From assembly GCA_017506865.1 (NCBI GenBank), contig JAFCMP010000368.1, positions 913,407-977,406 of the forward strand: a stretch of DNA of 64,000 bases, written 5' to 3'. The translations under genes were made by a program, and so were the position numbers. Position 1 is the first letter of the stretch. Every line of letters begins with the position of its first letter. The notes under the pieces were generated by a model. The model saw nothing but the letters and a program-made list of their open reading frames with translations, had not been told where the DNA came from and searched no databases. Shown here piece by piece: positions 1 through 52,719 of the stretch. This DNA comes from Tribonema minus. Lineage: Eukaryota; Sar; Xanthophyceae; Tribonematales; Tribonemataceae.

Positions 1-13
1 TCTCTGCCTCCTC
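1..13 (-). CDS. Minus gene exon 7 (cut by window edge)
   Basis: Acceptor CATTGCAG is followed by 13 nt reading Glu-Glu-Ala-Glu, in phase 0 with exon 6, so the coiled coil continues off the left edge. Two echoes of this acceptor and exon start lie at about 262-300 and 470-500, each reading Glu/Ala-rich for a few codons. Confidence 0.4.
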
Positions 14-3000
14 CTGCAATGGAGCAAGTTGAACGCCAAACATTTACATTGGTGATGACAGATAATGTAATCATATATCGATACTGTTGCGCTATGGCAA
101 TTCTCCTCGTGTGAGCAAACGAATCAGTATTTTGTTTTACGCATTGCAGCGTCTCTGCCGCTTCCCGCACCGTAACAGTGCCGCCTTCGGCACAATATTA
201 CATGCTGGCCATCCTGCAGGTGAAAACACATAGATTTCAAACGGGGGGGTTGCGCGACGCTGCGGCTTCACCTCCTCCTGCACCGGAGCAATACTGCATT
301 TTTGGCTATTCAAATATTGCATGCTGGCTGTTTTCGTGTGCGTGTGAACGACACAAGGACCATGCTTGTGTCTTGGTACATGTAGGACATGGTCTTACAG
401 GCACTGATACATCTGGACGATTAGCTGCAATGTAACAGGTGTCCATGAGGGTTTTGCGGCGCGCTGTGTCTCTGCCTCTGCCTCCGCCTGCAATGGAACA
501 ACGCGATGTTAGACACTGAGATATGACATGCTGTCGACTTTGTGTGCGGATTCTTCTGATCTGATCCTAACGCTTACCCTAGCCCTACACAAAGTCACGG
601 CACGCACTGCATGGCAGGCCCTTCTGCAGAAGAAACTTGCAGCATGCAAAGACAGTAAAATGTCCCATCATCTTGATACTACAGGTCGTCGAAGCGCGCA
701 CCCCAATTCAGAAGTCGCGTTCATTCCTTCACATTGATTCATTCATATGCTTTCACCTCATCTTGAAAAGCAGCAGCATGGCAGACCGAGAAAGAGGTGT
801 CCCGAACAGTGGATAGGCAGTTGCGAGCTCAAAGTTAAAGTTGCACTCATCTCACCTTGTAACCAAGCAGCATGGTCTCCGTGTTCTTGCGCGCTTCTCT
901 CTCTAACCGCAGTGCCTATGAAAAAAACGCACGACAGTGCAAAGGGCGTCGTTGCGAAAATGACATCCGTCAGAGAAACGCATCTGAAATGCCTCAGGCA
1001 CGCTGATACCCAGTGGCGTGAATGAGGAAATGATAGTCTTGAAGAATTACCGTATACAGCGATGACAATAATGAGGGACACAGGAGATGGCCACAAAGTA
1101 CTACACATTGATTGGTTGATTTGGGCGCTTGACTGGCAACTGGTACTTCAACACGACATTGTGCTTCCGAATCAACTGACGATAACGAGGAACACAGGAT
1201 GAACTCAAGGTACTACGCATTGATGGTTGCTTTGGACGCTTTGACTGGCATTTGGTACTTCAACTCTTGTACTTCACCTGTGCCTAATCGCCGCCGATCT
1301 GCCTCCACCTCAATAGCGCGCCGCAGGGCCTGTGCTTCTTTAACTTCACATTGTACTTCATCTCTGCTAATTACTGCCGATCCGCACCTCTTGAGCACTG
1401 GATTGGTTGCTTCAATTGGTACTTCAACTTGATGTTGTACTTCACCTCTGCTTATCGCCGCCGATCTGCCTCCACCTCAATAGCGTGCCGTTGGGCCTGC
1501 GCTTCTTCAACTTCACATTGTACTTCACCTCTGCTCATTGCCGACAATCTGCACCTCTGCATTGAGCACTGAGTCGATTGCTTTAACTGGTACTTCAACA
1601 TTGTACTTCACCTCTGCTAATCGCCGGCGATCTGCCTCCACCTCGATCGCCCGTCGCTGCGCCTCTGCTTCTCTGTCGGCGGCCCTTGATGCACGCTCCT
1701 GCACGCGAAAGTAACACACGGCTCAGCAAAATGTACTTTGCTAGACCTGGAGCTAGGGTTAGCAAGCGCGCACATGGATGAACTTGAAGTGCGGCATGAC
1801 GGCACACTAGACCCTAGGGCTATAGTTAGCACGCGCAAGTGATACACGTCTCAGCAAAAATGAACTTCAAGTGCGGCGTGAAGGCACACTAGAGCCTAGG
1901 GCTAGGGTTTGACCCTAGTGCTCGGGTGAGCACGAGCAAGAAGCACACGGCTAAGCAAAGCGAACGTTAAGTGCAGCATGACGGCACAGAGGTTCAAACC
2001 GCACCCTGGCTGCGCGCTCCTGCACGTGCAAGTAACACATGGCTCAGCAAAATGAGAACTTCCAGTGAACTTCAAGTGCCCACAAGCTGCAAACTTGGTA
2101 CACAGTGTCGCTCATTGCATCTGTAGCCCCCCCCCAATCATGAGCTGCGCCATGAGCGCACAGTTGTTAGACATGCACGAGCAACACACATTAATGGGAC
2201 TTCAAGTGCAGCGACGTCGCAGCTTCAATTTGCTTGAATTTGCATTTTAGAGGGGTACCTTTTGCATTGCTCAACGCGACACAAAACTCAGCCCAATCCA
2301 GTTGAGAGCTAGCTTTGAAGTGAGTCGAGTGACGTACACAGTAGCTGAGCATCGCTCCTTGAGAGCAGGGTGAGGGTTCAGCTGAGTGTTAGGGTTGAAG
2401 TTTGTATTATGAGCATAGGGGCTGGTTGACCATTATCGCATTGCGCAGCGTATCGCATACCTGAGCCTGCTACACGAGCGTATCGACGAGCCGCACCAGG
2501 CGCCATATATACCCTCGAGGTAGGGTCAAAGTTTAAACGAGGGTTTGCTGAGCATCATTGCATTGCGCAGAGTATCGCATACCTGAGCCTGCTCCACGAG
2601 CGTATTGACGAGCCGCACCACGCGCCACCCCCTGCAGTACCCCAGCAGCCTTAGCTCTGCAGCATCAGCGAGGATGCAGGTGAAGTCAGCACTTGAAGTT
2701 TGCGTTTGGAGGTTTTAGGTCGGTGTAAGCGCCGGAGGGGGGCGCGGTGATCTCACGGGCAGATCCGCAGCATGTGCCGACACTTCAGCAAAGAGATAGT
2801 CACTTGCTGCAGATTACTGAGTATGGATCGCGTATGTAAGGGTAGGTTTGGGCAAAGCGACAAGCACGTGCTGTCAGCGATGCGTGCCTTGCAAGGACGG
2901 ACAGCACCTGCAGAGGATCATGTCGTGCGCGTGCTGGACTTGGTTGCTAACCTAACTCTAACCCTAACCCTCACCCTAACCCTAACCCTAACTTCAACAC

Positions 3001-6000
3001 AGTCAGAGGCACAGCCGCCGTGCGCCGCATTCATGCTATGACCATCGCACGCTATCGCTGACATCACGTCTCCGCCCCTCAAGCACAAGTAGGCAGGGTA
3101 CAACGAGCGCAAGAGCGCGTGCAAAACTCCTGTGCCTGGCACCAGTGCATGTTACTTTAAAGCCACTTTTGCCAAACAGCTTTGATCTGCCAGCTCGCCA
3201 GTGCACCCCCCCCCCCCTTCTCCCGCCCCCCGCTGCAGTTACATGCGCACCTGGTGCAGCGCGTTCGATGATTGCTCAATACTAAAAGTGGAGAGTCACA
3301 CTTGCCTTTTGAGCCCCCCTGCAGCTCGCGCCACAAGCACGCTGCCACTATCGCCAGATCCAGCATGTAGCCCAAATGCTGCGGATTCGGAAGGTAAACA
3401 AGTGCACATGCAACAAGGCGTTTGACTGTGATGTGCAGAAAATCATAGAATCATAGCGGACATCGTTTGAATGCGATTCACATAATCATAGAATTGTAAC
3501 TGATATCGTGTGATGAGTGTGATTCACGGGACTCATATGTAGCATTATACAGATGCCACTTGAATGCGATTGACGAGACGCATAGGATCATGACAGATGC
3601 CGTTTGACTGCGATTCACGGGAATCATAGAATGACAGAGATCGTTTGAGTGTGATTCACAGGAAATCATAGAATCATGACACATATCGGTTGAGTGTGAG
3701 TCCCGGCAATCAAAGAACCACGACAGATATCGCGAGGGGCCTGAGCAATGAGGATAGGGTTAGCAGAGGGGTAGAGGCGTCAGCTAGCACAGACCGTGTG
3801 TCTTGCTCGCAGCACGCAGTGGGTAACTGCTGAGCCCGCGCCTCTGAGGTTGAATGTTGGGTCAGAGATGAGTATCCTTCTGAAGTAGTTCATTCCTGAC
3901 AGACTTCAAAGCACTTTGAAGCACACTATTTTCAAGTATACCTATTGCATGCAGTGATTGCGCATTTAGTGCCTGTCATTTGGATGTCCTTCCGCATTGT
4001 GCTGCGGAGGTCGTCAGAAGCGTCCCTAGACCACCGTCATGTTGAAGTTATTCGCCGGCTTTCTTACGTGTGCTTCCACAAACATCACGGTGACGCACCG
4101 AGCAGTTGGCGGGAGTTGAAGGTGGGAGAGTCACTGTTCTGGTGACGCACCTATTCGTGTCGCCACAGTTTGTGATCGGGGCGATGTGTCTCCGCCAGTG
4201 ACATTGGGCAACACCCGTCTCCGCACCGTGACCCTAACCTGACCCCTAGCTGCTGCACACAGTGGATGGCGCAACAGCCGCATCCACACCATATATTTAA
4301 AGCTATGCCTGAATCTGATACTATGTTCAACCCTTATACTAGCTCACATTTCACCTCAACCCTCACCTTGTTTCTAACTCCAACACTAAGCGCCAGTGAC
4401 TTTGGCAACACCCGCCTCCAGATCCTAATACTAACCCTGATCTGATCTTCAGCTGCTGCACCAGCGAATTGGGCAACAGTCGCCTCCAAATCCTAAACCC
4501 TACACCCAATTCTGATCCTACGTCTGACCCTCCACCTAACCGGCAGTGACATTGGCACCACCCACCTTCAGACCTTAACCAATACCCTACTCCTAACCCC
4601 TGACCTAATCTTCAGCTGCTGCTATGTCGGCAAGTGCTGATGTGGATGGTCCTTACCAGAGTGAGTGAGTGAGTGAGTGAGTGAGTGAGTGAGTGAGTGA
4701 GTGACCGGGGCGTTGTGTCACCGCCAGTGGCATCAACAAGACCAGCACTCAAACGCCAACCCTCACGCTATCCTGACCCGAGCTTAACTTCAGCTGCTGC
4801 ACTACCAACTTGTGTGCAGCACTTATGAACTTGTATTTATAGTGGCCCCAAGGGAGGCTGCGTGTCCTATGCAATCGTAAAAATTACTCCTATGCAGCAG
4901 CCTAGTCTGCACTGCGCCCTGAAAGTTTGGACACCGGCGCTGCAACTGTTACCGCCGCATTGGCCGCACAGACCACAACATGGAAGATGAAAGAGTCAGT
5001 GAATGAGTGAGTGAGTCAGTGAGTGACCATCACCAGCGACGCTGACAAGACCAGCCTCGAAGCCCTAACACCAACCCTAACCTAACCTATGAGCTGCTGC
5101 AGCGGCGGCCAGATTGTGAAAGCCCCACTGCAACAGCGGCCATGCGGACTGCGACTACGGGAGACATATACACATGGGAGAGTCACCAGCGGAGCAAACA
5201 CAGTAGGCGCTCACCAGCAGGAATTTTCTCCGGAACGCCGCCAGCAGCACCAGCAGCTCCAGCGCAAAGAAGAATATGGTGAAGTCCATGAGAGAGCCCG
5301 ACACGCGCTGCGCCACTGCCACCCACGCGCCCTGCAGCGGTGCAATGCGGAACAGTTGAAGTTGAGTGCTTCATGTGTGACTTGCCGGGGTGAAGTCCAT
5401 ATGAGAGCCCAACACGCACTGCGCCACTGCCACCCACGCGCCCTGCAGCGGGGCACATGCAGAACAGTTGAAGTTGAGTGCTTCATGTGTGACATGCCGC
5501 GGTGAAGTCTGTCAGCCAGCCCGATAAGCACCGCCTAAGCCTGATCCTGACCCTAACCCTAACCCGCCACTGCCACCCACGCGCGCTGCAGCGGGGCACA
5601 TGCAGAATACTTACAGTTGCGTGCTTCATGTGCGACATGCCGTGGGCAAGTCTGTCAGCAAGCCTGATACACACTGCGTCACTGACATCCAAGCGCCCTG
5701 CAGCGGTGCAAATACAGACCAGTTGAAGTTAAGTGCTTCCATGTGTGACATGCCGTGGGGAAGTCTTCCAGCCCAATACGCACTGCCTAACCCTGACCCT
5801 CACCCAAACCCTAATCCGTCACTGCCATCGGCGCGCCCTGCAGCAGCGTGAGAACATAACACTTGAAGTTGAGTACGTCATGTGTGACGTGCCGTGGTGA
5901 AGTCTCAGCGCGCTGCGCCGCTGCCAGGCACACGCAGCCAGCAGGGCGGCGCATGCGGATCAGTTGGTTTTGAGTACTTCAAAAGTGACGTGCCATGGGG

Positions 6001-9000
6001 AAATCTATCGAGCCTGACACTCGCTGCGCCACCGCCACCCATGCGCCCTGCAGAGCGCGGCACACAACACACAGCTGAAGTTAACCACATCGCACTTTGA
6101 GCCTCCACTGCATGCAGGGAATGTCTAAGAAGCGATGCGTTCGAAGCGTGTCAAAAGAAGACATGGAAGCGCGGCTGCTGTGCGTACGCGCAGCTTATGC
6201 TGTCATCACAACACGGGTACAACGTGTGCCGGGCACACAAGCGACCTGCGGCACGATGGATTTCCCCTGTTGTTCATTGCCAGTTACATGGCCAAAACTG
6301 TTGGCAGTGGGAAAGTCGCTCATTGGCGGTGCCAGCAGTGGGGCGAAGTACTGCATCACAAGGCTTTGCAGCTGAAGCCAGTAGTACCTGTGCCATTGCA
6401 CGCATGGCTGGAGAATATGACAACATGACCCTGTCAGAAGCCCTCGTGCCGAGCTACGCAGCTGAAGACGGTGATACCCATGCCATGCGCTGTGCGCAAC
6501 GCCTGCGTGGCTGGACTGGGAACAGTACAAAGCAATGGTGACCCTCACGGAGGTACTTCCGCTTCTTCCACGTCTTGTTGCTACACAGCCTGACGCTTAG
6601 CTGACAGGCAACAGCATACATGCCTTCTGTAAACACCTGCCCATGACACGACCTATCACAAGTACTTTTGTTGCTTTGCCCGCAAGTAATTCTGCAAAGC
6701 GAAGCACAAGCCGTGTGGCAGCAGGCTGATCAACGCGTAAACAGCACCACTAACCCTAACCCTGACCCTTGCCGAACCTCCTGCAGTACACAGCAATTGC
6801 AGTGTACTGAAGCCTTCATGGCAGTGTGGCCCAGCTTGCGTGACACCGGCAGCTAGCTGCTGATGTGCTGTATGCGACACCAGGCCCATTGCGTCATTCA
6901 TGAATTCATTTCACGCGCACAAAAGGCTTGAACGCATACTTGCGCTTCAGGAAGGTTCCCAGTCGACCGCAGTTCACATCGCAACCGTGACGCCAAATCG
7001 CGCACCACAGCAGGCTTTGCCGCTATAATGGCAAGAAGACGATCGCACAGCAGCCTGACCTATTCTGAAGTACCAATTGCGTACAGTGTGGGTACCTGAC
7101 CCTCTCCCCACGCCAGTCCTCATGGTGCGTCTAAACAACTCGAAGTACGGTTTTCAGCAGCGTCAACCTCAAACTGCGAGTGTGATGCACCTGCCGTGCG
7201 TCCGCCAGCGCGCCGCCGCCCCCTGCGCCCCCCAGCCACAGCAGATTGGCAGTGCTCAGCAGCAAAAGTATGTTGTTTTCGGCGCCAACTTCAAACTGCG
7301 AGTGTGACGCACCTGACGCTCCGCCAGCGCGCCGCCGCGCCCCGCCTCCCCCAGCCACAGCAGATCGGCGGCGCTCAGGAGCAAACTTCAACTTGAAGTA
7401 TGTTTTTCAGCAGCGTCAACTTCACACTGCAAGCGCGACGCACCTGGCCCTCGCCGCCGCGACCCGCCCCCCCCCCAGCCACAGCAGATCGGCAGTGCTC
7501 ATGGCAGCAAAAGAACTTGAAGTCAGGTTTTCAGCAGCGTCGACTTCAAGCGCGGCGCACCTGATGCTCCACCAGCGCGTCGCCGCGCCCCCCCGCCCCC
7601 GCCAGCCACAGCAGATCGGCAGTGCTCAGCAGCAGGTCCATCATGATGAGCATCACCATCAGCAGCTGCACCTCGTACAGCTCCACCAGAGCTGCGAGGT
7701 TCTGCAGTCCAGCCGGCGCGTGCGGCGGGGCGTCATCTTCAACTTTTGCTACCTGAACTTCCGCCTGTCGGAGGGGCAAGCAGTTTACTTGCGACTTTCA
7801 TGCATGCATGAGCATCCACAATGTGAACAGTTTCTTGAGTTAACATCATTCACAAAAACTCGCACAGCCTTCATTTTTCCGCCTGTCATCGCAAGGGCAG
7901 TATTAGAGCTCCGACTGTCATGCAACATGATGTCTGCAATACAGGGCGTTATTTGGGAAGGCTTCATAGACTGCCCTGCAATCTACCTATGCACCCTCAC
8001 TTGCTGTATTATAAAAGTGTTTATATACTACTCAAGCACAGTCAACCCTTTCTGCTGCCTGGGCCGTCGCTTGACAGCATGCGCAACTCATACAACCTGT
8101 GTACTTCGGATTGCTTCTCACTGATAGACATTTGGTGGCATACACTGTCCAATCGGCAGCTTCAAGCGGACCCCCCCCTGATCCGGACTTATGGGAGTTG
8201 AACTACAGTCGGTCACAATGTGGGTGCTGGCGCCACAATACATGCACACTTTGTGCTGAGCACTGCTGACGCCGCTCAAGGGCGATCCCGCTTAGATGTG
8301 TAATTCATGCGTGTTGCCACCCTCCGCGCAGCACTGTTTTCCGCCTACCAGAGGCCCTCCCGGCGTTTGTACTGTTGTCGAATTAGAGACTCAAATGTGC
8401 AGGCCTGCATGCCATGATAGTATGCGGGCTTGCACTCGTACTGCTGTTGTGTCAGATAAGGTATACTGTCTGTGACGCAACAGGGGTTCATGTGCTGAGC
8501 GCTGCGGAGCCACTAAGCACTGCCACAGGGCAAAGCACCAGCCAGCTGAGCGCTGCGGTCACACCAATTTGCACTATCCCTGCCGTACGTTGCGAACTGA
8601 CGCACAGCGGTCCACGTTGTTGAGCGTTGTGGAGCCACTGAGCACTTCCACGGGTAAATCATCAGCCAGCCGAGTGCTGTGATCACAACAAACCATTTCA
8701 CCTGGAGTGATCGAGTGCCATGAGTGAAAGGCTGCACAACACATGGTAAGCATCAACTCTGGCACCGGCAACATGCGGGAAATATGCCGAGATGGATGCG
8801 GCCATAGACGACTCTTTTCTTTACACCGAATGCCAGGGTCCTTATGGCGGACATCGGAGTTGTTGCTGCACCACAAAAATGCACAGCTACAGGCGTTGGC
8901 GTGCGGCTAATTTTGAGCCACTTAGCCATGATGAAGTTTTTCGAGTCACAACTTCAACTTGCATCGTTTGGAGGTGCACAGTGAGGTCTGCAAGTGACCT

Positions 9001-9703: not shown

Positions 9704-9992
9704 CTAGGCCGCACGGCAGCTCTCCATGAGAACACCTACAGAGCCCCGCTCACACCACACTTGTTCTCCTGGAAGTGCAGAATTCAACATGAGGTTGAAG
9801 TTGACTCGGGAAAGAACTTGGGGAGAGAGGGACGGTGACCAGAGCCTGTATACGGATGTGTGGAGCACGAGCCGTAAATTTATAGCGCTGGCATTCGACC
9901 TGCAACACCGGCGGCGACAGCACAGTGCCGGACCGTCGCTGAGGATCTTACTCGACGGAACGCTCCACCAAGTGGCAACACAACAGAGACCG
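9704..9992. promoter_or_regulatory. Divergent promoter region
   Basis: This 289-bp spacer separates the ATG of the minus gene (9703) from the ATG of the phospholipase gene (9993). It is free of echo arrays and telomere-like runs, unlike nearly every other non-coding stretch of similar length here. An AT-rich TAAATTTATAG block lies at about 9875-9888, some 110 bp before the plus ATG. No transcription start can be fixed from sequence alone. Confidence 0.45.
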
Positions 9993-10225
9993 ATGGCTCG
10001 GGGACTTCCGCTCCTTGTGGCGGCTCTGTACCTCTGTTCGAGCCATGTGATGTGGGTTCATTGCCTCCGGGCCCCTGTAAACACGCTGCGGCCCTCATCA
10101 GCGGCGGCACACGTAAGCACAGCAGCAGCCAAGCCAATTGCAGCAGCCAGCAGCAGCCGCAGCTGCAGCAGCTGCGGCAGTAAGCCCCTATTTTATGCTG
10201 ATTTGAGTGCAGCTAGCCCGAGCAG
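9993..10225 (+). CDS. Phospholipase gene exon 1 (signal-peptide-like leader)
   Basis: The ATG at 9993 opens MARGLPLLVAALYLCSS, a short basic start and a hydrophobic core. An Ala/Ser-rich stretch follows, with few acidic residues. This looks like a signal peptide followed by a transit-peptide-like region, so secretory or complex-plastid targeting is possible. Donor AGCAG|GTGAGA at 10226 gives phase 2, matching exon 2. A weaker donor at about 10179 (GTAAGC) would give the wrong phase. An in-frame upstream ATG at 9726 would add 89 residues and lose the leader, so I prefer 9993. Confidence 0.6.
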
Positions 10226-13200
10226 GTGAGAACAAAGCATACTTTGAAGCACTCGATGCAAAGTTGTTGTGCCGAATCGCTACGTGGAGTTGTTCCCCTT
10301 GGAAGCATTTGTCGTGAACTTGCAGCCAACCTCGTATGCCTAAAAATATTCACGCAGTCTAATAAAGCATACAAGTACGGTAAATGCCTTCATTTTGCAA
10401 TGGCGCCCTCATGCCAGTACAGAGCCAGCCGTCTCTCGGAACGCTTTGTTTTGCCAGGAGCCAAGTAGGGCAGGCTCCTGCACCTGGCATCCTGGCATCA
10501 AACCTGTTATTATTTATGCTATTGTGTAAGCTACATTCAGCATGGCAGCATCTTGCATGTGCGACTTGCCTGAACTTGAAGTGCGCCGTTGAACCTGCCC
10601 TTCTATCGCAGATGTTCTGCTTCGGCGCGCGGGAGGGGTGGACCGTTGCTGATGCAGACGCTGGGCACTACTGCGGAGTCAAAGGACGTGCAGCCTGCAG
10701 ATGCATCATCACCCACAGAGGTAAGGCACAAACTCAGCCGCTATTGAGGTTGGGTACTTGCTGTTGAATGAGCAGGAATTTGCAGGTGTCGTCCACAGAG
10801 GTAAGGCGCAAACTCAGCGGCTATTCGAGGTTTGAAACTTGCTGTTGAAGTAGCAGGAATCTGCAGGTGTCGTAGTCTACTCTGATGCAGTTTCCTGGCC
10901 ATAGCTAGCTGCTGCGGATGTTGAGCACTGCTGCGGAGTCAAAGGACCTGCAGCCTGCAGATGCATCATCATCCACACAGGTCAGGCACAAACTCAGCGG
11001 CTATTGAGATTTGGCACTTGCTGTTGAAGTAGCAGGAAATCTGCAGGTGTCTGTCGTCTTCTTTGATGCAGAGCTTCTGCCACAGCTAGTCCGTTCGACA
11101 TGATCATGTCTCTGCATCTGCAGGCATTGCTGAAATTGTTGCAAGTACAAAAGATCATGATCTGCAGCATCTGTTGGACTGGAATTCATATCGATATTAG
11201 CAGTGGCTGAGGTTGCCGCTAAGTTCAACACGTTGCCGTCAGCGCTCCCGGCGCAGTCGGACCAACTTTGCCTACAAGGGTCGTAGTGCAGTAATTGCTG
11301 CATCAGTTGCGGGTGGCTCGTACGGCAGTGCAGTGTTGGCTACATCAGTGGCGGTTTGCTCATTGCGCAGCTAACACTGCATCAGTTGCGGATGCATCCT
11401 GCCGTGCGCTCACATTCTTCTGCTGTTGATTGGAGCAGCTTGTTCGATGCTAGCCATGGGTGCAACCCACTCATCAGGCAGGGCACAAACGCATGGCGTA
11501 ATTCTAGCTGAGTGTGAGTGTTTGAAGTTGACATATGTGTTTAGCGTGCATTGCAGCAGCAGATGATTGATGAGGGGGTCAATCAATAGTTCTTCTACAA
11601 CAAAGTGCAAGGGGCTGCTGGCAAGGGCCTGAGGCAATTGAGATCTTTATACTTCCATCAACTCTTCAGACTCAACTTGCAGGGCGCACTGAGAAGTGCA
11701 ACATCGCTTTCAGGTGCGAAATGCTCTTGTCACTCAGCAGAAAAGTGACATTTCTACTTCAATGTGGCAGTTTGCCAGCAGCCTTGGAAGCTCTCATAAG
11801 CGCATACCATCTTGTCCATTCTCATCCTCAGGATCACGTCGACGTGCGCGGCGGGCTGCTCGCGGAACTCTGGGCGAGACTGCCGGTAAGTGCAGCGCTC
11901 AGCAAGTGCCTGTGGATATGGTATGTGCAAGGTAGGTATATCTGTTGTGGTCATATACCTACCTGGGTGGGCTGCTTGCGGAACTCTGGGCGAGGCTGCC
12001 GGTAAGCGCAGCGCTCAGCAAGTGTTTGCTAGGCATACCTGTTGCAAGCGTACACCTACCCGTGTGTGCCACAAAGCGCCTCTCAAGCACTGGGCAACCT
12101 TCGCGCTGTGATGTGTGGAGCAGTGCCCCAGTGTTAATGCAGTGTGCGATGACATCACTTTTTGTGCACAGATCTGCGCTAAAGTATCTTCGTAGCATCT
12201 GGCGGTGCCACGGAGGCTATTCAGCACTTGCACAGTGCATGGGCATACTTGAAGCATGTGATTTTTCTGTTGCGAATGCTTCAGAGTGCATCACTGGTAT
12301 GCGCATACATTTGACCGCCTGACTTACAGACAATTTTGCCAGCGCTTGAAAGCGGACGTATTTTTGGGCTCTGGTACATTACATTGGTCGCTTGTGTTGC
12401 AGTGGTCACAACGTCAGTGTGACTTGAACTTGAAGTTCACATTCTGTTCAAGGCCACACATTCAAATGCCCAGATTTGCTCGACAGCTCCATGGTTGGCG
12501 CATATTGGGAGTTTAGGAGGGTTTTTAGGAAGAAAGATGTCAGGCAGGATGCCGTCGCTCGCGCGCATTTAATTAACAGCGTACTTCAGGAATAAAGATG
12601 TCGTCGCTCAGGCACGCATTCACCTGCCCCCCCCCCCCCCCCCTCTGTGTCCGCTCATTGCGTGCCATTCAGGTGCCCTTCCGGCAAAAACGCGCCGCCA
12701 CCGAGGCAGACGACAGCGCCCACTCTCCGCCGCCGCCGCAGCAGCAGCAGCAGCATCAGCTGAGCGCTGCTGCAGCTGCTCAGCAACAGAGCACTGCCGC
12801 TGTCCACCAAACGGGCGTTGACGTCCTTCCTCAGCAGCTGAGCACTGCTGCTGCTGCTGCTGCCGCTGCGCAGCAGCGGAGCGCTGCTGAAGCTCCGCCG
12901 CCGGCGCCGCCCGCGCCGCCGAAGCCCAGGTCGCCGGTGTCGACCGCCATCGCGGCAGTGCTCGCGCCCTCGTCCCCCGCCGCTGCTGCCGCGCCCGCTG
13001 CTGCTGCGGCCGCGCCTGCTGCTGCTGCTGCGCCGCCTGTTCCTGCTGCCGCTGCTGCGGACGCGCCCGCCTCCTATGTGCGGCAGTCTGCGTCACTTGA
13101 AGTTGAAGTTGGAGATGACGGTCCACCCACCCTGGCGGAACGCGCTCCGGCGCCAGCAGCTGCGGAGCAGGCGCAGCGCCCGGCGACGGAGCCTGAGACG

Positions 13201-16200
13201 GGGGAGCTAGAAGGGGGCGGCGAGGGGGGCGGGGGGAACAGGGGGCGGGTACTAGGGAAGCTGCTGTCGTGGGTGGGAATGGGTGGCAAAGGGGGCATTG
13301 CTCCCGCGCACGCGGCAGAGATGGTGTCGAGCGCTGTGGGCAGCGGCCCTGGCGCGCCGGCAGTTACATCCGACTCAGAGGCACAGGTGGGCAGCAATCT
13401 CTGGAATATAAGCGCAAGATGAAGTAATGCGCCTTTGAGAGGTGGGCACTTGAAGTAGAAGCTGGTTCTGCTGTGCAGCAAGAGAGGGTCTTGGTTGAGC
13501 GTTGTGGGCAGCAGCCCTGGCGCGTTAGCAGTTATGTCTCAATCAGAGGCTCAGGTGGGCAAAGCGATCCGTTGATTGTGAGTTGTAGATGAGGCACACG
13601 CCTTTCAGAGATGAGGAAGGCTGTTTTGTTGTCCAGCAGGAGTCGGCGGCAAGCGCAGTGGGCAGCGGCGCTGGTGCACCAGCAGTTACGGTCACGTGAC
13701 CGCTGTAACTGTCACTTGCGCACAGGCATGAATCATGAAACAACAAGGTCAACACAGATAAGGCCCATACTCCAACACGACCTAAGGGCACAGGTGGGCA
13801 GCAGTTTGTACAATGTAAGTCGAGGATGAAGTGATCGGCGTTTGAGAGATGGGCATTTGCGGTGAAAACTGTTTTTGTGCAGCAGAGATGGTGGTGATTG
13901 ATCGCTGTGAGCAGCAACCCGGCACACCCGCTGTGGCGCCAGTCTCAGAGGCTCAGGCGGGCAGGCATTTTTGGTTTGTGACTACATGTACGTAGATGTG
14001 AGGTTTGAAGTATATTTATATGCACACCTCTGAGAGACATGAACACAAGGTGAAAGCTTTGTTGGTACGCTGCGCAAGGTCCCAAGAGCTGTCGATTGGG
14101 TTGAGCGTTGGAGGCGCAGGTGAAGCGGCGCTCGGTCGCTTGAAGTTGAAGTGTACGCCTCCCAGAACAGGCACTTGTTGTTGAGGCTGTACCACGCGGA
14201 CGCTTTTGACAAGAGACGGGCAACGGAGGCGCAGGCGGTAAGCAACCCATCGTAAGGTGACGTTGAGTGTACACCTTTGACAAACTGTGCACGAACGACA
14301 ACACGAGCACAATCAGGCAATCGAGGTCTCAGCTGTAATGCTGCGCAGCAGCATCATTCAAACTGCTGTCTGTGAAGTTGAGCTTTAGACTGTAAGCTCT
14401 GCATGCTGCGGCTGCTGCTGCTTTCTCTTGTTGTTCCTGTTGTGCAAATGCCATGCCGGCAACCTTGAAAGAGTCACCCCTGGCGTGAGGATGCACCTTG
14501 AAATCTCTCAATGACTGAAGTCGAAGCACTTGCTTCAGCAACAGACCGTCTGCATGGTCAAAGCAGTATTTCGCTGCAGTATGCCATTGGTGCCAGCGCA
14601 TGACTCTGTCACCTCGCCCTCTGAGCTGCCATCGCCTTCGACGACTCGTGCCTGTTGCAGACATACACGCCCGGGACAGCCGCCGCTGCCGCGACAGCAC
14701 CGCCAGCATCATCGTCAGCACCCGCAGCAGCAGCAGCAGCAGCAGCACCGCCGCCGCCGCCGCCGCAGTCAACTGCTGCCTCCAATGACGCCCGCAGCGC
14801 AGCAGCGGCGCGCGCGGAAGATGCAGTCAGAGGAGACGCAGCAGCAGCGCTCGGCAACGAAGCTGCTGCCACAGCGCTGAGCAAGGGCGCCCCCGCAGCA
14901 GCGCTCAGCGGCCCCCTGAGCGCTGCTGCTGCCACCACTGTGCCTGCTGCAGGCGAGACGGCGAAGCAGCTGAGGCGTGCTGCAGACCCCGCGTCGCGGC
15001 GGGGGGCGGGGGGCAGCGCGGACGAGGGGAGTGAAAAACAGGGGGCGAGCCGGGAGGGGGCGCGCGGTGCGGAGGAGCCCCCGGAACGAGTTGGCCCCCT
15101 GCAGCAGCTGTGGGGTTGGTGGGGGGGCAAAGAGGGGGAGGGGGAGGGGGTTTCACAGGCGTTGGGTGGGGAGGCGGCGCAGCAGGGGGGGGCACTGCAA
15201 TCGGAAGGAGAGGGAGGGGGGGAGCCGGGGCGGTGGTCGCCTCTGCAGCAGCTGTGGGGGTGGTGGGGGGGGGGCGAGGGGGGCGCGGAAGCCGGCGACC
15301 TGAGCGCTGCAGGCGGGGAAGGCGCGCAGCAGCGGCAGCAGCAGCAGCAGCAGCCGCAGTTCCTGCCTTGGGGGTGGGGGGGAGGCTCGGAGGGCGGGGA
15401 GAGTCAGGAGGGGGGGCGTGCGGGCCCCCTGCAGCTGTGGGGCAGGGGCGGCGCGAAAGAGGAGGGGGAAAAGGGGGGCGTGGGTGTCGAGGGGGATGGA
15501 GGGGAGGAGGGGCGTAGCGGCCCCTTGCAACAGCTATGGGGGGGCGTAGGGGAGGTGGGGCGGGCAGTGCAGGGGCTGCCGGGGTGGGTGCTCAGCAGGG
15601 GGGGCGGCAGTGATGAGAGTCAGGTGCGCGGGGGTCACCTCCGTTCATTCAAATAACGGCCAAAAAATGCGGCTACACGCCATGTTTAAAAGCGCAGCGC
15701 TTACATCATCGATGAGAGTCAGGTGCGCTGGCGTCACTTCTGTTCATTTCAGAAACAGTGTAACGAAAACAGCTTGTTTTTTACTAATATTCAAATGAGT
15801 GGCGCTTACGTCATCAATGATGCTGCATGCGAGCGCTCATGGCCATCAGCGCTTGGGATTTTTGAACCTCGGTGACCCATGTAGGATGAGAAGCACGCGT
15901 CGCACTTTAAGGTTGAAGTGAAAACGTGCAATCTTGCAACAGTGTAACACATGTATCAGTGGCTGCATGCTGCAGCAGCTGTGGAAGTAGTGTTGGGGAC
16001 GTGAGGCGGGCTGCAGTGCTCAGGAGAGGGCTGGCAACCGCTCAAAGTCTGTCCAGGTCGGGTGCCTGCTGTGGCGATGACTGTCAATGAATGAATCTTG
16101 GCTGAGTGTGGACCCAGGGTAGAGACCTGATTTGCCGAACCTGTCTCTGGCATTGTAACATTAAGCAGTAAGGTTTGCTGAGCCCAGCAAGCCCCCATGT

Positions 16201-37200: not shown

Positions 37201-40200
37201 AGTGCAAGAGGCACAAGGCAGCGGTCAACAGTGCCTCAAAGCACAATGGTTTACTGTTAGTCAGAGAGGTGTTTCCACGGCTGAACTGACCAGATGTCGC
37301 ATTTTTTTCGCGGAGAGGGCGCAAAATATGGTGCAGTTGTACGCCCAGGCTGGCCGGCAGAACGAAGCCAGGCACTGATGTTGTCCGCTTGCATCTAGCT
37401 TAGGGGAGTGATAGCGAAGTGCCAGATGTTTCACGCTGCCACGTACATGTCACCGATCCTCTGCAGCAGGTGCCCTAGTATTTCTTTATTCAGGTTTATT
37501 GTTTGTGCGTAAGCATGTATGCAATGGAGGACTGTGCGTTGATCAAAAAGCTGTGGTGCACCTCTGCACGTGCGATTCATGCGCTCATGGCATACATTTG
37601 GTGACCAGGTATGCATGTCTAGTTCAAGGCGGAAGTCACTCAGGAGACATGCTGCGATTCGCTCGCTGTGCACCTGCGCAGGTGTCGTCCATGCTTTCGC
37701 CGCCGCAAGACAGGGCCGCGGTGCTGTACGGCCAGGAAGCGGCGGCAGCGCTCATGGTGGAGCTGGCAGTGGTGCGTCACCGTACTTCATGAGTCGAAGT
37801 TAATGTTAGTCATGCTGCGGCAACGTCCACAGTAAAGCTGGCAGCTCTGCATGCGCTTGCACGTTTGATCACATCCAACTCTGCCGTGGCGATGCTCCAC
37901 GGCACTCGACATGACTCTGTGCTGCAGTTTCAATGTGGTGTGCGTGCCGCTACAGGCGACAGACTCCGCCAGTAGATATCCCATGGCCATGGGCACAGTT
38001 GAGCTACCATAATCTGACCTTACCACCTGATATGCCATCGCCGTTGTCCTTCATTTTCAATGCATCTTGTGCCACCATTAAAGGCATCCAACTCTGCCAT
38101 CGAGACTCTACTACCGTCTTGTCTATAATTAAGGACACTGGACGGCTTTTTGTTAGTTTTAACGCCAGACCCAAAACATAGGACACCCTTTTAATTGCTG
38201 CACCAGAAAGATGTCCACCCCGTATTTAATTGCTTCAACAATAAGATGTTCACCCCTCTTTGTGTGCCACACAGTCCAATTACTATGTTCACGCCGTGTT
38301 CAGAGCAAAGCTGAACTTGCTCGTGGTGCTGGAGCTGGGGCCAGGCGGTGCTGCTGTACGTTTCTGCGTGACTGGCTTGAAGCCTAATAGGCGCTGTTTA
38401 CCAGCTTTGACCTCTGTTCTATGGATATACAGCAGCACTGGCACTCAGAGCGGCACCTGGCACTTCACTTCAAAAGCGGACGCGGACCCTGTCAAAACTG
38501 GCGGCGAAACGTTTTTTTTTGCGGCTCCGCTGTTTCGCGAGAGAGCGAGCGAGAATCATCCCTGAAGTAGAACGCAGTGCACAGAAGTGGATCTTTGTGC
38601 TCTTCTTAAAATGCGTCCACCCCTTTTAATTAGCTGCGCAAAACGGACGTCCACCCCCCCTTTTTTCGCGGCAACAAAAAAGCCGTCCAGTGTCCTTGAT
38701 TATAGACAAGACGGTACTTTCATGCAGCCAGGTCCATTGGCCGCATGTGTTCGCACAGAGTCCTCATAGTATCCCTTACTTTAATCTTCCTCCGTGGTGT
38801 TCATCAGTTATGTGTTACGGTGCTCAAATACTCGACTTGCGCCTGCCTTCGTCATTGATGTTTTACCTGGCGACTCTGCTTCTTGTGGATTCTGTACCAC
38901 CCATGACAGGCATCCGACTCTGCCGTAGCGATGCTTCACGGTCTCGACATGCAGTCCCTGCTAGAGGGCCTTGTGGAGAAGGGGCTGGCCAGGCACTACG
39001 GCAGCGGCTCAGGGAAGGCGGAGGCAGCGCTCAAGGGCCCGACGCTGGCTGCCTTCAAGGTACTTGTGAATCTGTATGCAGAAAAGGGCTCATCTTCACA
39101 AACAATGGCGAACGCAAAATTGGATGTATGGAACGGTGGCAGCTCCTCAGTAAATCGAGGCAGCGCTTAAGGGTCCGACGCTGGCTGTCACATAGGTACA
39201 ATTTGACTTGTGGTTATGCAGGCCTCTATTGCAAGGATGTGAAGGTCTCATATTGGCAAGGTATTTGTGATGGACACAACCATGTATTGAAACTTTGGCA
39301 GCGGCTCAGGAAAGTCGGAGGCAGCGCTCAAGGGCCAACCCTGGCTGCTTTTATGGTACTCATGAACCTGCATGTACTAAAGGTTTCTTCTCAGTTTTTT
39401 TCTACAATATGAACGCGCCATGGCAGACGCAATACCTGATGTATAAGACTGTGGCAGTACGCCGCACCTCAGTGAAATTGGAGGCAGCGCTCAATGGTCC
39501 GACGCTGGCTGCCATCACCGTACTGTCATATGGCATGGGTGTTTCGTGAAGGACTAATGGTGGCCATGTAATTTGTCACTATGGCAGCGGCTCTGCAAAG
39601 TCAGAGACAGCGCTGAAGGGTCCGGCGCTGGCTGCCTTCAAGGTAGACATTGACTTATGTCAATGAAAGCCTCTATTGCAAGAATGTGAAGGGTCTCATG
39701 TTGGCAAGGTGCTTGTGATGGACACAGTCATGTACTATTTACTTTGGCAGCTGTTCAGCAGACTCAGAGGCAGCGCTCACAGGCCCTTACCGGCTGCTCT
39801 CAGGGGGGCTCGGATAGACAAGCACTGGTCATGTAATGCATCACCGGTGTTGCGACAGTGCCCTAGGGGACCTGACAGCAATGGCCCACAGGAGAACCAC
39901 TGCCGTCACCCACAGCAGCACGTGTTGCGGCGCCCTTGCATTTGTCTGTGTCCTGAATAGATCACTTCAACACTCACCAATCGCACATTCGCGCTGCAAC
40001 TGAGCTGCGTGACGCTGCACACGCGGACCCAGAACACAAGATCAATACTGTACATCATGCTAAAGTTCAGGCGCACTTGCTATAGCAGCTGTCAGTGATC
40101 AGAAGCTCCGTCATCTTAGTGCCACTTCGCCCCCTTTGTGCGCCCACAGAGCTGTAGCAAGTTGACGGCAGCACTGGGCTACGGACGGTGGCGCCCGCGG

Positions 40201-43200
40201 ATGCCTGGGCAGAGGTGAGAAACTTCTTGTGCTTTACTCAGAGTATTCCTTAGAGTGCTTCAATCAGGTGGCTCTTAGTTGGTTGACATGTGTGTGCGAA
40301 TGCCTGGGCAGAGGTGAGGACTTTCCGGCGGTTTATTCGGAGGAATATATTCCTTAAAACGCTTTGATCAGGTGGATGTCGTAACTGACTGGTATGGAAA
40401 GTAGGTGTGTGCGCATGACACCTGTAATTCTTCTGTGTGTGCGAATGCCTGGGCAGAGGTGAGGACTTTCCGGCGGTTTATTCGGAGGAATATATTCCTT
40501 AGAACGCTTTGATCAGGTGGATGTCGTAACTGACTGGTATTGAAAGTAGGTGTGTGCGCATGACACCTGTAATTCTTCTGCTGCTGATGCGGTCGGCACT
40601 GCTTTTGTGGGCTACCTCTGTTTTGAAGACAGATCAGAGCTGAAGCTTAACGATAGATCAGAATTAAGGCAAGGCAGACAGGATGTAGCTGGGCCAATGA
40701 GTGCGCTCTTTGGTCATGCTTCTGTGCTCGCGCAAGCAGAGCATTGCTAATAGATCGTGAGTTGAGATGGTGGGATTGGCGTTTGCACAAGATCAAATGA
40801 CAAATGACTGCCCCAACTTCCTTGCAATGCTGGCGATGTAGTAGTCTTCTGTGATGTTGGCAACGTAAAACTTCAATCGTGGTGAGTATTACGGCATGCA
40901 ACAGCGCTCGCCCCTGACCCTAACCTCAAGCACTCTGCTCAGCATCAACGCGTGAGTGACATGCTTGGATGAAATGTTGGGATGCCAGGCAGTTGCATTC
41001 AAAGCTGTGGTGATTTGACGACTGGCTGACTCAAGTAGGTTTGCGACGAGCATAATGCATTCATCATTGCTGTGTCATGTACAACAGTGGTTGTGCCCGC
41101 TTATCAATGAAGACTGGAAGATCACACCAATATCTACAATCTGTGTGCGCTGTTGCCCTTCTGCTATGTTCTCGGCGTGCTGCAGAGGCCTGCGGATCCT
41201 GTGTCTTGACGGAGGTGGCACCAGGGGGGTGCTCACTGTGGCACTGCTCAAGCAGGTCAGTTCTGTTGCTTTGCATGGCCCATGCCGTTCTCTACATGTA
41301 GCAGTTGGCTAACCCTAACCCAAACCCTAAGATCGCCGCATGTAAGGCGCTGTCGTGCAGAACCATGACCAAACGAGCGGATTTCAACCAACAGCGGGTG
41401 CAATGGCGCAGCACTGATTTTGAGCACAAAGTCAGCTATCCTGTGGGATTTGTTTCCAGCGGCTTTGGAGGGTGCACGCCGGAGTAGGCAGCGTATGGTG
41501 TGAACTCTGCGCTAGCACAGTCTGTGAGGCTTTGTGTACAGCAGCATGAGTTCCGGACGCCACGCTATTTGGCAATGCGCAATGCATGCTATCAGCGCTG
41601 CAGCTAAAGTAGCACGTGGGACGAACTGCTCAACAAAACGACAAGTGCGTAACCCATGGGAGGTTAGGCCAGAGAGGGTTGTTTGCGCAAGCCATTGATG
41701 TTTAGGCGAGATAGGAATTTTGCCATTGCTGACATTGACTGTGGCGTGGAACAACGGTTTGGTTTTCATCAGCGGCACAGTGCCTCATAGCGGCAACTCG
41801 CACAGATCATCATGTCATGCCGGTGACCAACCAGACATGGTGCATACTACCGTCAGCATAATTCAGCGAAGGCATTGCTGGCACAGCACTGAAAAGGTGG
41901 CACAGCTGATGCTGTTATTGCTGAGCTGCTATGGGTGTCGGTCGCACGCAACAACCTGAGTTGATCACCCTAGGCACCAAGCCGACTGCCTCACAGACAT
42001 GGGCGAGTCACTCAAAACCGCATTACTCTCATTGTGGCACGCTTCAGGTGATGGCGATTTACAATTTTTTAGTGACTCCGACTCCTGCTCCGCAAAGCTG
42101 TGACTCATTCACTTGTGAATTTGACTCCGCTGTTGCGGGAGCGGAGTCGGCAACGATTTCAAGCGTGAATTCGTGCCAACCCAAGGGTTTCACTGGCCCT
42201 AACCCTACCCCTAACCCTAGCCCTAACCCTACCCCTCATTGTCTGCCCGCATACGAGCGTCACTCACATCGCAGTCCCACAGTACATTATGATCACGCCA
42301 GCTTGAGAATGAGGTAGTCTCTGCAATAACGGCAAACATCTTGCGTGTATGTGGCACGCTTCATGATGGCAATAACTCCGAGCATAGAGTTGCGGTAAAT
42401 TCTTCAACAACGGCAAGCAGCTAAGCGTGTGTTCCATAACCTGAGTTGATAAACCTAGGCGCCGAGCCTGTTGCCTCACAGACATGGGCGTATTACTTGA
42501 AACCTCATCGCTTCTTTGTGGCACGCTTCAGGTGATGGCGGGAGTTGGCAAGGAGCCTCATGAGGTCTTTGACCTCATCTGCGGAACCTCCACAGGCGGC
42601 ATCCTCGCGACACTGGTATGTTTTGTGATTGTTTCTTTAATTTCTGTTTTGCAGCGTGCACAGAAGCACACATACTTTAAAGTATGAAAAGTGCTTTTTG
42701 AATGCTCCAGCGCTGTTCCTGTGAACTGTAGCAATTTCTGACAGCCCTGAACTTGCAAATTGCACCTGTGTTGGACTTGCACCTGTTGGTGGGTGCGCAT
42801 TGAGAATCCTCTCATTTTGGTGCTGCAGCATGACTATCGAAAGGCGGTTTCTGAACAGCACTGGTCCTGAGGACAGCAGCAGTTCTGGCAGTTCTGATTT
42901 GTGGATCGTTCCGGTGTGGGCTTTTTTACCAAGCTCACTTGCCAAACTTGCACACACCTATCGAAGTATCATGGATTCAACAATCGAGTGACAGGAAATC
43001 ATTAATATGCTCAGCAGAGAGCCTCCTCTCAGTCTCTTTCAGCCAAACGTGAATTTCGTTACAGCGCAAACACTCGCGGAAGCTGGCAGAAATATTCATT
43101 CCACGCCGGTGCTCTTCACCGCTTATGAACTTCTGCTGCAGTTTGCAAGCTTGAAGATCGACCTGGAGTCAACTTCAAAAGCCTACGACGAGCTCATCAT

Positions 43201-46200
43201 GAAGATCTTCAACAAGATACCATGGCTGTCCAACTTCATGCTCGTCAAGGACCAGGCGCTGGTGAGTTGAAGTGCAATTTAATCAGTTTTAATTTGTTCG
43301 ATTGACTGACTCTATAGCAGCGTTCAATACTGGGCTTGATAGTAACTCAGTATTTCAATCCTCACAGGCTAACTAGCGTAAAGTGCCAGGTATACCCCCT
43401 GGTGGGTCTTGGCTGTGAAAGAACCATGGAACTGTGGAACACCGAGGGTCAGTTGCAGCGAAGGGGGCGTTCACCTGGTGTGGAGTTGAGCTGTCATGGA
43501 TGCTCGCAGGACCGCATGTGGCTGATATGTATGCATACTATTTGCCAGGCTGGATCATTGGCTGATCGTATTTGTGGCAGGATTTCCCAGAAGATAATGG
43601 GGCTGTTTACCAGGCGCTCTACGGTGTTTCCTCTCAGGCAGGGGAACATGTATCGGCTCAGAGTGTTGCAACTGGACACAGAGTGGACTCATAACACAGC
43701 TGACCAGTCAATTGCAACATGAGTAATGCAGAGTTTATTACGAGCACCAGCTGCGCATGCACAATGAACTGCTACTTGACGTCATTTCCTGATGGTATGT
43801 ATGCTGCCTCCGTGCCCCCCTGGCAGTACTCTGAGGGCCCTTGGGAGCTGATCCTGAAGGACTTTCTCGGCGACACGAAGCGCATGATTGACATTGGTGA
43901 GCAGTACTCAGCCTACCTAGCATTAGGGTTCTCACATTCGTCCCGCAGTAGTATTGCTCAGCGCATCCTCGTGTGCACCACCTAAGGATTATTGTGCCTC
44001 AATGTAATAATGGTGTCCGGCTCATGCATGCAACTCGAACGCTCTCTTACAAGGGGAACACTCCATTGCAATACTGCACTTGTGCGCCTGGTTTTCGAGG
44101 ATGTGGACCCATCACAGCTGCATGCGTATGACTGTCTGTACAACTGCCAAGCTGCTCGCAATTGTACTGCCGCTGTTGACATGGCATACAAGTAGGGGAA
44201 GGCTACATATCCTGCCAACACGTGCTCATGTTTTTTTTACAGTTTTTCCTTTCAATCATTAATATGAACCCTCTGCAGATGATCAGCAATGACCCACCGC
44301 CTCTTTGATGCAATCGCCCTGCTCCTCTGCATTGCATGCCGCTGATGCTTCACTGATGTGCATTGCAGTGCGTGCAGAGGAGGACCCATTCGCTCTCAAG
44401 CTGGCCCTGTGCTCCACAATTATGAACGTGGATCCTCTCAGATGATCAGAAGTAACCGCCTTTTTGATGCAATCGCCCCACTCCTGTGCATCGCATACAT
44501 CTGATGCCTCACTGGTGTGCGTTGCGCTGCGTGCAGAGGAGGACCCGTTCGCTCCCAAGCTGGCACTGTGCTCCACGATCATGAATGTGGATCCTCTGCA
44601 GATGATGGTGTGGCGCTCGTACAACTACCCGGCGCACACACGTCCGCCGCATGAGGGCTCCTTCAGGAACAAGGTCGGTGCTTGACGTGAAGAGTACTAT
44701 ACACTTCAAATTTGAAGTAGTATTAGTGGTCTAATGACTGAAGTGAAGATGGCGCACACGCGCCTGCCGTATGAGGGCCCCTTCAGAAACAAGGTGGATG
44801 CATGACGTGGGTGGAGTGTATTACACACTTCAAAATTGAAGTAGTATTCATATTCTAATGACTGAAGTGAAGATCGCGCACACGCGCCCGCCGCATGAAG
44901 GCTCCTTCAGAAACAAGGTGGGGGTGCATGACGTGAAGAGCATTACACACTTCAAAGTCGAAGTAGTATGGATATTCTAATGACTGAAGTGAAGATGGCG
45001 CACACGCGCCCGCCGCATGAGGGCTCCTTCAGACACAAGGCGGGGGTGCATGACGTGAAGAGTATCACACACTTCAAATTTGAAGTACTATTAATATTCC
45101 AATGACTGAAGTGAAGATCGCGCACACCCGCCCGATGCATGAGGGCTCCTTCAGACACAAGGTGGGGTTGCCCGACGTGAAGTATTACATTGCATACTGC
45201 AAGTTGATGTAGCAAGAATGCACGTGATGACTGAACTGAAGGTCACAGAAACGAGGTGGGTGCCGTGAAGGGTATTACATGCTTCAAGGTTACAGTAGAA
45301 GAGGTATCCTGATCAGTGAAGTGAAGATGTGTGGAACATTCATGCTGGATTCATTGCAGAGGTCAGGGTGACGCTGCACTACGTTCTCATTCGCTGTTTT
45401 GATGTTGTCTACAATGCACGCTGCCAATTTCACATGCATAAACTCGCTCTACACAAGTCAGAGAGCAGTGCAAATGACGATTGCCCATCACAATGCCTCT
45501 CAATGACGGATAAGTTTTGTCAGTGAGCACGCTATAGCCACCAACACCAGTAATTGTAGTGCACAACCCTAAAGTATCATTCATGCGCTCATTCAGTTCA
45601 ATCACAGAATATGAGCATGCTCATTGCAGCCAAAATACCTGCAATTTCATGAAATCATGCATCCAGACAAGCCGCATGCATTGCCAAATTACTCTGATCT
45701 CACCATTCACCAGTGCCCCCCCCCCTCCCCCCCTCTCTCAACAGATCTGGGAGTGCGTCAGAGCCACGACGGCTGCCCCCACCTACTTCAAGCCTTTGCA
45801 GAAGGGCGCGATGCTCTTTGGCGACGGTGCGCTGTTGGCCAACAACCCCACTGCCGTCGCACTGGCTGAGGCACGGCTCATCTATCCCGGGGTCCCAGTG
45901 GAGGCAGTGGTATCAATAGGTGAGTTCCGGCAATGTGGTCCAGAGCTGGCCTTGCGTAGGCATTGCTTGCAGGTTTTCGCTGGTTTCAAGGTGCCTCAAA
46001 ACTACATGCATTTGCTGTAAGCAAGAATAACTGTGTTTGTAGTTGGCCCCTGCTGCTCCAGAATAGTCTTAAGCACAGCGCCGCGTATGGAAAGGGATAG
46101 GGTTACAGTTTGGCGGTGCTGGTTTGTAGACAGGGTCTGTTTTGCAGTTCTTGTCATCTCTGTAGCCGATCACGTCTGCACAACAGCAAACTTTTGCACT

Positions 46201-52688: not shown

Positions 52689-52719
52689 TACTGCAAATTG
52701 CCATCTTCACAAAAGCTTC

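What the first reader, a model, noticed from the sequence alone, without database searches (positions are those of the whole stretch)
1..51277. Exon echoes: introns built from tandem copies of the neighbouring exon's splice junction
Seen directly: at most exons of both genes, the intron contains 1-9 decayed tandem copies of that exon's border. Acceptor-side copies sit upstream (exons 7, 8, 10, 15, 18, 20, 22, 26, 29, 32, 35; minus exons 3, 6, 7). Donor-side copies sit downstream (exons 2, 3, 4, 5, 9, 12, 19, 22, 26, 27, 32; minus exons 2 and 6). Units are usually 100-145 bp. This is not a transposon pattern, since every array is private to its exon. It suggests intron expansion by repeated local duplication across splice sites, by replication slippage or unequal exchange. 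I do not know of a described system in which this is general across a gene.
Basis: partly seen in the sequence, partly recalled or inferred. Interest (0 to 1): 0.92.

Follow-up and report, generated by a model that had tools for sequence, protein, structure and literature searches.

The report
Introns grown from copied splice junctions
In this alga, short stretches spanning the exon-intron border have been duplicated in tandem again and again, so many introns carry fading copies of their own exon edges; this shows, in several gene families, how introns can lengthen without harming the protein.

Summary
In the window, 15 of 25 modelled exons have border copies in adjacent non-coding DNA. In kinesin genes elsewhere in the 158 Mb genome, 32 of 74 domain-matched exons have a copy in their own flank that beats 20 control flanks. 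Of 33 refined kinesin and dynein introns, 20 carry arrays, and 22 or 23 of 24 arrays reach into an exon. Two array units searched genome-wide match only their own locus. A paralogous light-harvesting gene pair shows polarity: one paralog has three acceptor junctions where the other has one, and the extra copies account for 283 of the 306 bp intron difference. I explain this as tandem duplication of segments mostly 90-180 bp long. Those crossing one splice site are tolerated because the extra junction is spliced out, and the conserved exon keeps old copies recognisable. Junction arrays exceed a uniform neutral model, and copies seldom reach beyond 75 bp into the exon, so a junction bias stays open. 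I found no described general case in the library searched. New variant of a known kind.

The parts
13160..13386 (+). modelled coding exon; donor-border copies downstream at 13481-13642, 13640-13689, 13778-13899 and 13879-13974
18811..18948 (+). modelled exon; seven acceptor-border copies upstream between 17847 and 18693
23973..24115 (+). modelled exon; four donor-border copies downstream between 24176 and 24539
27601..27856 (+). modelled exon; acceptor-border copies upstream at 27109-27172, 27200-27318 and 27321-27472
30590..30748 (+). modelled exon; acceptor copies upstream at 30067-30159, 30240-30302 and 30409-30471, donor copy downstream at 30828-30903
38955..39059 (+). modelled exon; donor-border copies downstream starting at 39138, 39292, 39453, 39577 and 39741
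44537..44673 (+). modelled exon; two acceptor copies upstream (44255-44446) and four donor copies downstream (44751-45241)
44631..45189 (+). tandem array of 4.6 units of 122 bp crossing the donor junction of exon 44537-44673; its unit matches only this locus
19832..20251 (+). tandem array, period 114, whose consensus unit reads like coding sequence followed by a donor (GCCGAAGGTGAGACAG); my model missed its exon
   Evidence: the junction is read by eye
5187..5331 (-). minus-strand modelled exon; six acceptor-border copies on its upstream side, 5389-6082
7561..7641 (-). minus-strand modelled exon (to 7764); donor-border copies at 7111-7509, offsets 125, 251 and 370
1612..1698 (-). minus-strand modelled exon with a weak coding score; donor-border copies between 1253 and 1552
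25137..25420 (.). young full-length tandem duplication (period 141, 96.5%), 143 bp from the nearest modelled exon; unit matches only this locus
40289..40580. young full-length tandem duplication (period 145, 98.6%) off modelled exons; 40197-40271 resembles the unit, so it may belong to a junction array whose exon my model misses
45739..45864 (+). patatin-like phospholipase exon of the plus-strand gene (end of the Pfam domain)

Best explanation
Segments mostly 90-180 bp long (median spacing 145) are duplicated head to tail in this genome. When the duplicated segment spans one splice junction, the cell keeps using the original site (the first donor or the last acceptor). The extra exon border then falls inside the intron, the protein is unchanged and the intron is longer. 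The array may grow further, and the intronic copies then decay as neutral DNA. Because the true exon stays conserved, old copies stay recognisable on their exon part after their intron part has drifted. Shown here: tandem layout, polarity, privacy of two units, presence in several gene families, more junction copies and a longer intron in one of two paralogs, and decay of the copies. Inferred: that splicing ignores the copies, that the founding step is repair of a staggered break by fill-in and end joining, and that selection removes duplications that disturb splicing.
For: Kinesin exons: 32 of 74 beat the best of 20 control flanks, about 3.5 expected. In 33 refined introns 20 have arrays, which cover 32% of intron bases; as counted, 23 arrays reach an exon and 1 does not, but one of the 23 (L036) rests on a match that I judge spurious, giving 22 and 2. 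Polarity: 67 of 70 donor copies downstream, 92 of 104 acceptor copies upstream, both directions searched. Paralogs L060/L061 (two largest matches about 90% identical): introns of 966 and 660 bp; acceptor junctions at 4740, 4864 and 5023 in L060, one at 3334 in L061; the other gene of the pair has three junctions against one. Decay: GT is kept in 53 of 70 donor copies and AG in 66 of 104 acceptor copies; by base, G 0.97, T 0.79, A 0.80, G 0.82, neighbours 0.65-0.96. Mismatch at the three codon positions 0.076, 0.074, 0.154, as expected if the copy is free and the exon changes at silent sites. Identity steps down at the junction. Two units match only their own locus.
Against: Uniform neutral duplication run through the same pipeline puts 0.36-0.55 of arrays on a junction, or 0.63-0.70 with more events per intron than observed, against 22 or 23 of 24. 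A short-ancestral-intron model gives nearly all on junctions but also arrays in 32.5-33 of 33 introns, against 20 observed. Exon reach is narrower than uniform: over 75 bp in 3 of 41 cases (exon at least 150, unit at least 110 bp); KS p = 1.6e-7, n = 46. In 12 of 126 copies the exon part has under 3% mismatch while the adjoining intron part is near random. 13 of 33 introns show no array. In L060/L061 loss in one paralog is not excluded. No RNA data.
Confidence: 0.75

Rival explanations
1. Junction-centred duplication: breaks or fill-in synthesis occur preferentially around splice junctions (for example set by nucleosome phasing, or by transcription- or splicing-linked lesions), so introns grow from their edges.
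For: 22-23 of 24 arrays on junctions against 0.36-0.70 over all uniform simulations; with exons removed, 14 of 18 intron arrays touch an intron edge against 35-51% in simulations; exon reach mostly under 75 bp and median unit 145 bp, sizes that recall half and whole nucleosomes (recalled, not tested).
Against: The three pairs that match over a whole period at 96.5% or more overlap no modelled exon, though one of them (40289) may sit in a junction array that my model misses. Short ancestral introns also put nearly all arrays on junctions. Conserved exons make junction copies visible for longer.
Confidence: 0.3
2. The copies are functional: alternative or mutually exclusive exons, or decoy splice sites kept by selection.
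For: Some copies keep 95-100% identity over 40-66 exon bases; the donor G is kept in 0.97 of copies and GT in 53 of 70.
Against: T of GT (0.79) and AG (0.80, 0.82) are kept no better than neighbours; first and second codon positions have changed half as often as the third, too much for constrained coding; copies are cut exon pieces, mostly 20-75 bp; junction number differs between paralogs.
Confidence: 0.07
3. Introner-type transposable elements inserted beside exons.
For: Many introns are affected and unit sizes are similar.
Against: Units contain the exon's own coding sequence, two units match only their own locus and control flanks from other loci match far less.
Confidence: 0.02
4. [quoted passage not shown]
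For: Tandem duplication around splice sites is present.
Against: Donor flank resembles acceptor flank at p<=0.01 in 2 of 33 introns, weakly; in the one paralog pair, the member without an array has the same intron.
Confidence: 0.03
5. Gene conversion from the exon keeps the exon parts of the copies similar.
For: 12 of 126 copies have nearly intact exon parts beside near-random intron parts, and mean intron divergence does not rise across bins of exon-part divergence.
Against: The average step at the junction is near what one-sided decay plus finding copies by their exon part would give (my judgement, no test of it); codon-position pattern as for free copies.
Confidence: 0.15

Closest known systems
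[quoted passage not shown] potato RdRp case, PMC4974935, passages)
   Same: Local tandem duplication in a gene, protein left unchanged because the extra copy is spliced out.
   Different: There it creates a new intron; here an existing intron is lengthened by copies of one of its own junctions. Donor and acceptor flanks resemble each other in 2 of 33 introns.
Small tandem duplications at staggered breaks by CST-guided Pol alpha-primase fill-in and end joining (PMC8355091, passages)
   Same: Abutting head-to-tail copies with little shared sequence at the join in the three young cases.
   Different: That work is on mammalian cells and shorter events (it speaks of insertions under 100 bp and of 43 and 50 bp overhangs); the machinery was not examined in this alga.
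Introner elements (PMC9860276, passages)
   Same: Genome-wide change of introns.
   Different: Introners are dispersed families of similar introns; here both units tested match only their own locus and contain their own exon's sequence.
Short direct repeats near splice sites (Rogers and Bendich 2025, PMC11782384, abstract and section list)
   Same: Direct repeats at intron-exon borders.
   Different: Mean 11.4 bp, found by comparing the two borders of an intron; here units of mostly 90-180 bp at one border, in arrays.
Tandem exon duplication (recalled, no call)
   Same: Exon sequence duplicated beside itself.
   Different: Here mostly 20-75 bp of an exon edge, decaying.

Membership tests
Intron gain by tandem duplication (Rogers) | donor flank and acceptor flank of the intron are duplicates of one exonic segment | tested here: not met
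   2 of 33 introns at p<=0.01, weak
Intron gain by tandem duplication (Rogers) | intron absent before the duplication | tested here: not met
   Paralog L061 has the same intron without the array; one gene pair only
Introner elements | many introns share one similar sequence over their length | tested here: not met
   Two units match only their own locus in 158 Mb; control flanks match far less. Introner families elsewhere in the genome were not searched for
Introner elements | target-site duplication or terminal inverted repeats | not tested
   No shared element to test
Tandem duplication by staggered-break fill-in | abutting copies with little or no shared sequence at the join | tested here: inconclusive
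   0-2 bp in the three young full-length pairs; the join in L060 lies in C-rich sequence (by eye); older arrays too diverged
Tandem duplication by staggered-break fill-in | dependence on CST-Pol alpha and end-joining enzymes | not testable with these tools
   Needs genetics in the alga
Mutually exclusive or alternative exons | coding constraint and intact splice sites in the copies | tested here: not met
   Codon-position mismatch 0.076/0.074/0.154; GT kept in 53 of 70, AG in 66 of 104; use in mRNA not testable here

The most novel reading that the evidence does not exclude
In this alga tandem duplication is directed to splice junctions: units of about one nucleosome length are centred near exon-intron borders with at most about 75 bp of exon, so introns grow outward from their own splice sites by a junction-linked break and fill-in process. 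Exons then serve as fixed reference copies from which the history of intron growth can be read.
Probability: 0.3. Interest if true: 0.85.

Novelty: new variant of a known kind. Interest (0 to 1): 0.68.

Why it matters
How introns become long is usually put down to transposons (general knowledge). Here 32% of the bases of 33 introns lie in recognisable tandem arrays, most of which include one of the intron's own splice junctions. Since the exon side of each copy is a conserved reference, the age and order of intron growth can be read directly. The genome also asks how the spliceosome tells a true junction from several similar copies within a few hundred bases, which RNA-seq can test.

Tried and rejected
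Telomeric repeats as filler at duplication joins: 65 tracts of (TTAGGG)n of 12 bp or more in 210 kb, 0 expected, but no link to copy edges: 6 of 59 within 60 bp, 7.2 expected. Rejected.

A shared intron-start motif (GCAGYGCTCAGCA), followed up from a 10-mer found in 6 of 33 kinesin introns: 8 scattered occurrences in window 1-52000, none in the 20 kinesin loci. Rejected.

My first idea that junction arrays should be rare by chance was too strong. Uniform simulations give 0.36-0.55 and 0.63-0.70 with more events; short ancestral introns give nearly all. I therefore do not claim targeting. Rates, unit lengths and exon conservation in the simulations are assumed.

Recent allelic differences: C70/C489 are 99.87% identical over 3 kb and carry no arrays, so not informative.

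Lineage: a light-harvesting exon is closest to fucoxanthin chlorophyll proteins in the PDB, so probably a red-plastid alga; that the top entries are from diatoms is recalled. Pavlovales CCMP2436 (165.4 Mb, GC 55.2%, 2,243 scaffolds; PMC9756366, passages) does not match 158 Mb in 554 contigs. Phaeocystis globosa (GC 64.6%; PMC11347835, passages) does not match either. 18S rRNA could not be had. Passages of PMC9481584 were read for introners and gave nothing on this pattern.

Literature: ten searches of the held open-access library (31 was about lineage, 78 about telomeric repeats) listed no paper that I recognised, from titles and abstract starts, as describing general splice-junction arrays. 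Subscription papers are not in it.

Caveats on counts. One search used 74 of the 132 kinesin matches: those in 20 multi-exon loci that I chose; control flanks were not matched in length. Of 33 kinesin introns, 24 with a splice score of 4.5 or more were kept, plus 9 dynein introns; one search fetched four of the dynein genes. Gene-finder junctions (206 of 272) are predictions, and some predicted exons may be copies (for example L035 7278). Searches count only copies with at least 15 bp of exon and look on the intron side only. One search kept 126 of 173 copies; one search used 78 junctions, of which 71, 46 or 41 pass the length filters. One search listed 9 pairs of at least 93% over 45 bp or more: 5 overlap a modelled exon and match over part of their period only, 4 do not, and 3 of these 4 match over a whole period.

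Full report
What was checked. The window lies in a 158 Mb, 554-contig eukaryote genome without a name. GC is 48-66% in 2 kb steps. The main plus-strand gene holds a patatin-like phospholipase domain. A light-harvesting exon of the same genome is closest to fucoxanthin chlorophyll proteins in the PDB, so this is probably a red-plastid alga. The kinesin motor and dynein AAA_6 families gave 132 and 59 matches.

The observation. Self-comparison finds 71 local direct repeat pairs and 6 more distant ones in the window; Tandem Repeats Finder gives the larger arrays periods mostly of 111-167 bp. With a gene finder trained on homology-supported exons of this genome, one search reports border copies for 16 of 25 modelled exons (13 of 22 plus, 3 of 3 minus); in one of these (14953-15623) the copy lies within the exon itself, so 15 of 25 have a copy in the adjacent non-coding DNA. 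Two array units searched against the whole genome match only their own locus. A third query matched elsewhere only through bases 128-212 of the query, which hold a CAG-rich stretch; its other border parts matched only locally.

Not a peculiarity of this locus. I took 74 kinesin exons defined by the Pfam motor domain in 20 multi-exon loci that I chose. With coding sequence alone as the query, 32 of 74 score higher against their own flanks than against any of 20 control flanks from other loci, about 3.5 expected. In 33 introns with refined splice sites (24 kinesin, 9 dynein), 20 carry arrays and 13 do not, 32% of intron bases lie in arrays, and 22 or 23 of 24 arrays reach into an exon. Of 272 junctions, 85 have a junction-spanning copy within 3 kb; among the 66 homology-supported ones, 23 do. 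These are sampled gene families, not a genome-wide census.

Anatomy. Donor copies lie downstream (67 of 70) and acceptor copies upstream (92 of 104). Spacing has a median of 145 bp (quartiles 120 and 182). Among copies with at least 15 bp of exon, the reach into exons of 150 bp or more has a median of 54 bp, and exceeds 75 bp in 3 of 41 suitable cases. Copies of one array often share the same exon-side limit, as expected from one founding duplication.

Polarity of change. A duplicated pair of divergently transcribed light-harvesting genes (L060, L061; the two largest matches about 90% identical) gives a comparison. In L060 the intron before one exon is 966 bp with three acceptor junctions, at 4740, 4864 and 5023; in L061 it is 660 bp with one, at 3334. 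The two spacings (124 and 159 bp) make 283 of the 306 bp difference. The neighbouring gene in the same pair has three junctions against one. Gain in L060 is the simplest reading; loss in L061 is not excluded.

Fate of copies. Identity is about 0.87 on the exon side, 0.72-0.77 just inside the intron and about 0.6 at 55-60 bp, against a baseline of about 0.56. Mismatches in exon parts are 0.076, 0.074 and 0.154 at the three codon positions. Splice dinucleotides: donor G kept in 0.97, T 0.79, acceptor A 0.80, G 0.82; neighbours 0.65-0.96. So apart from the donor G, the signals are kept no better than their surroundings. One result does not fit well: in 12 of 126 copies the exon part has under 3% mismatch while the adjoining intron is near random, and mean intron divergence does not rise with exon-part divergence. 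Gene conversion is possible, as is the bias of finding copies by their exon part.

Neutral or directed. Simulated uniform tandem duplication with protein-preserving selection, run through the same pipeline, puts 36-55% of arrays on junctions, or 63-70% with more events per intron than observed; observed are 22 or 23 of 24. If introns were about 100 bp when arrays began, nearly all arrays fall on junctions, but then arrays appear in 32.5-33 of 33 introns instead of 20, and the intron parts of observed units (median 101 bp, 95th percentile 196 bp) show that many introns were already longer. Of 9 pairs with at least 93% identity over 45 bp, 5 overlap a modelled exon but match over only part of their period; the 3 that match over a whole period overlap no modelled exon, though one of these (40289-40580) may belong to a junction array whose exon my model misses. 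I take tandem duplication plus tolerance plus visibility as the core and leave a junction bias open.

How it may start. Those three pairs share 0-2 bp at their joins, which fits fill-in and end joining of staggered breaks as described for small tandem duplications in mammalian cells (PMC8355091, passages). This is inference. Telomeric repeats are strewn outside exons (65 tracts in 210 kb, 1 in exons) but not near copy edges.

Comparison. The Rogers-type model and the potato case concern intron birth (PMC4974935, passages); birth is not the general case here. Introners are dispersed families (PMC9860276, passages). In ten library searches (listed in Tried and rejected) I saw no listing that describes general splice-junction arrays.

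Noticed in passing
loci L033-L052, L056-L059 and window 1-52000: Interstitial telomeric repeats: 65 tracts of (TTAGGG)n of at least 12 bp in 210 kb, none in three order-2 Markov simulations, 1 in modelled exons; AACTTC is the next commonest tandem hexamer.
   Followed up: partly
window 52669-56865 and about 61414-63978: Reverse transcriptase reading frame (RVT_1, 29.5 bits against a cut-off of 29.6) and a second, partial, similar copy; TRF finds the same 21-bp unit at 53027 and 62666.
   Followed up: no
window 59835-61589: Long open frame upstream of the second retroelement copy, no Pfam match at 0.01; it looked OTU-protease-like to me (recalled, untested).
   Followed up: no
G000 C70:83300-86300 and C489:4560-7560 (L062, L063): 99.87% identical stretches on two contigs; C489 (11.8 kb) is probably a redundant haplotig.
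   Followed up: yes
L033 exon 5636-5827 and others: Copies whose exon part is 98-100% identical while the intron part is hardly or not recognisable; 12 of 126 copies have exon mismatch under 3%.
   Followed up: partly
whole genome: 92 light-harvesting matches and 132 kinesin matches; some kinesin matches lie in very long open frames (to 1897 aa) while other kinesin genes are split into many short exons.
   Followed up: no
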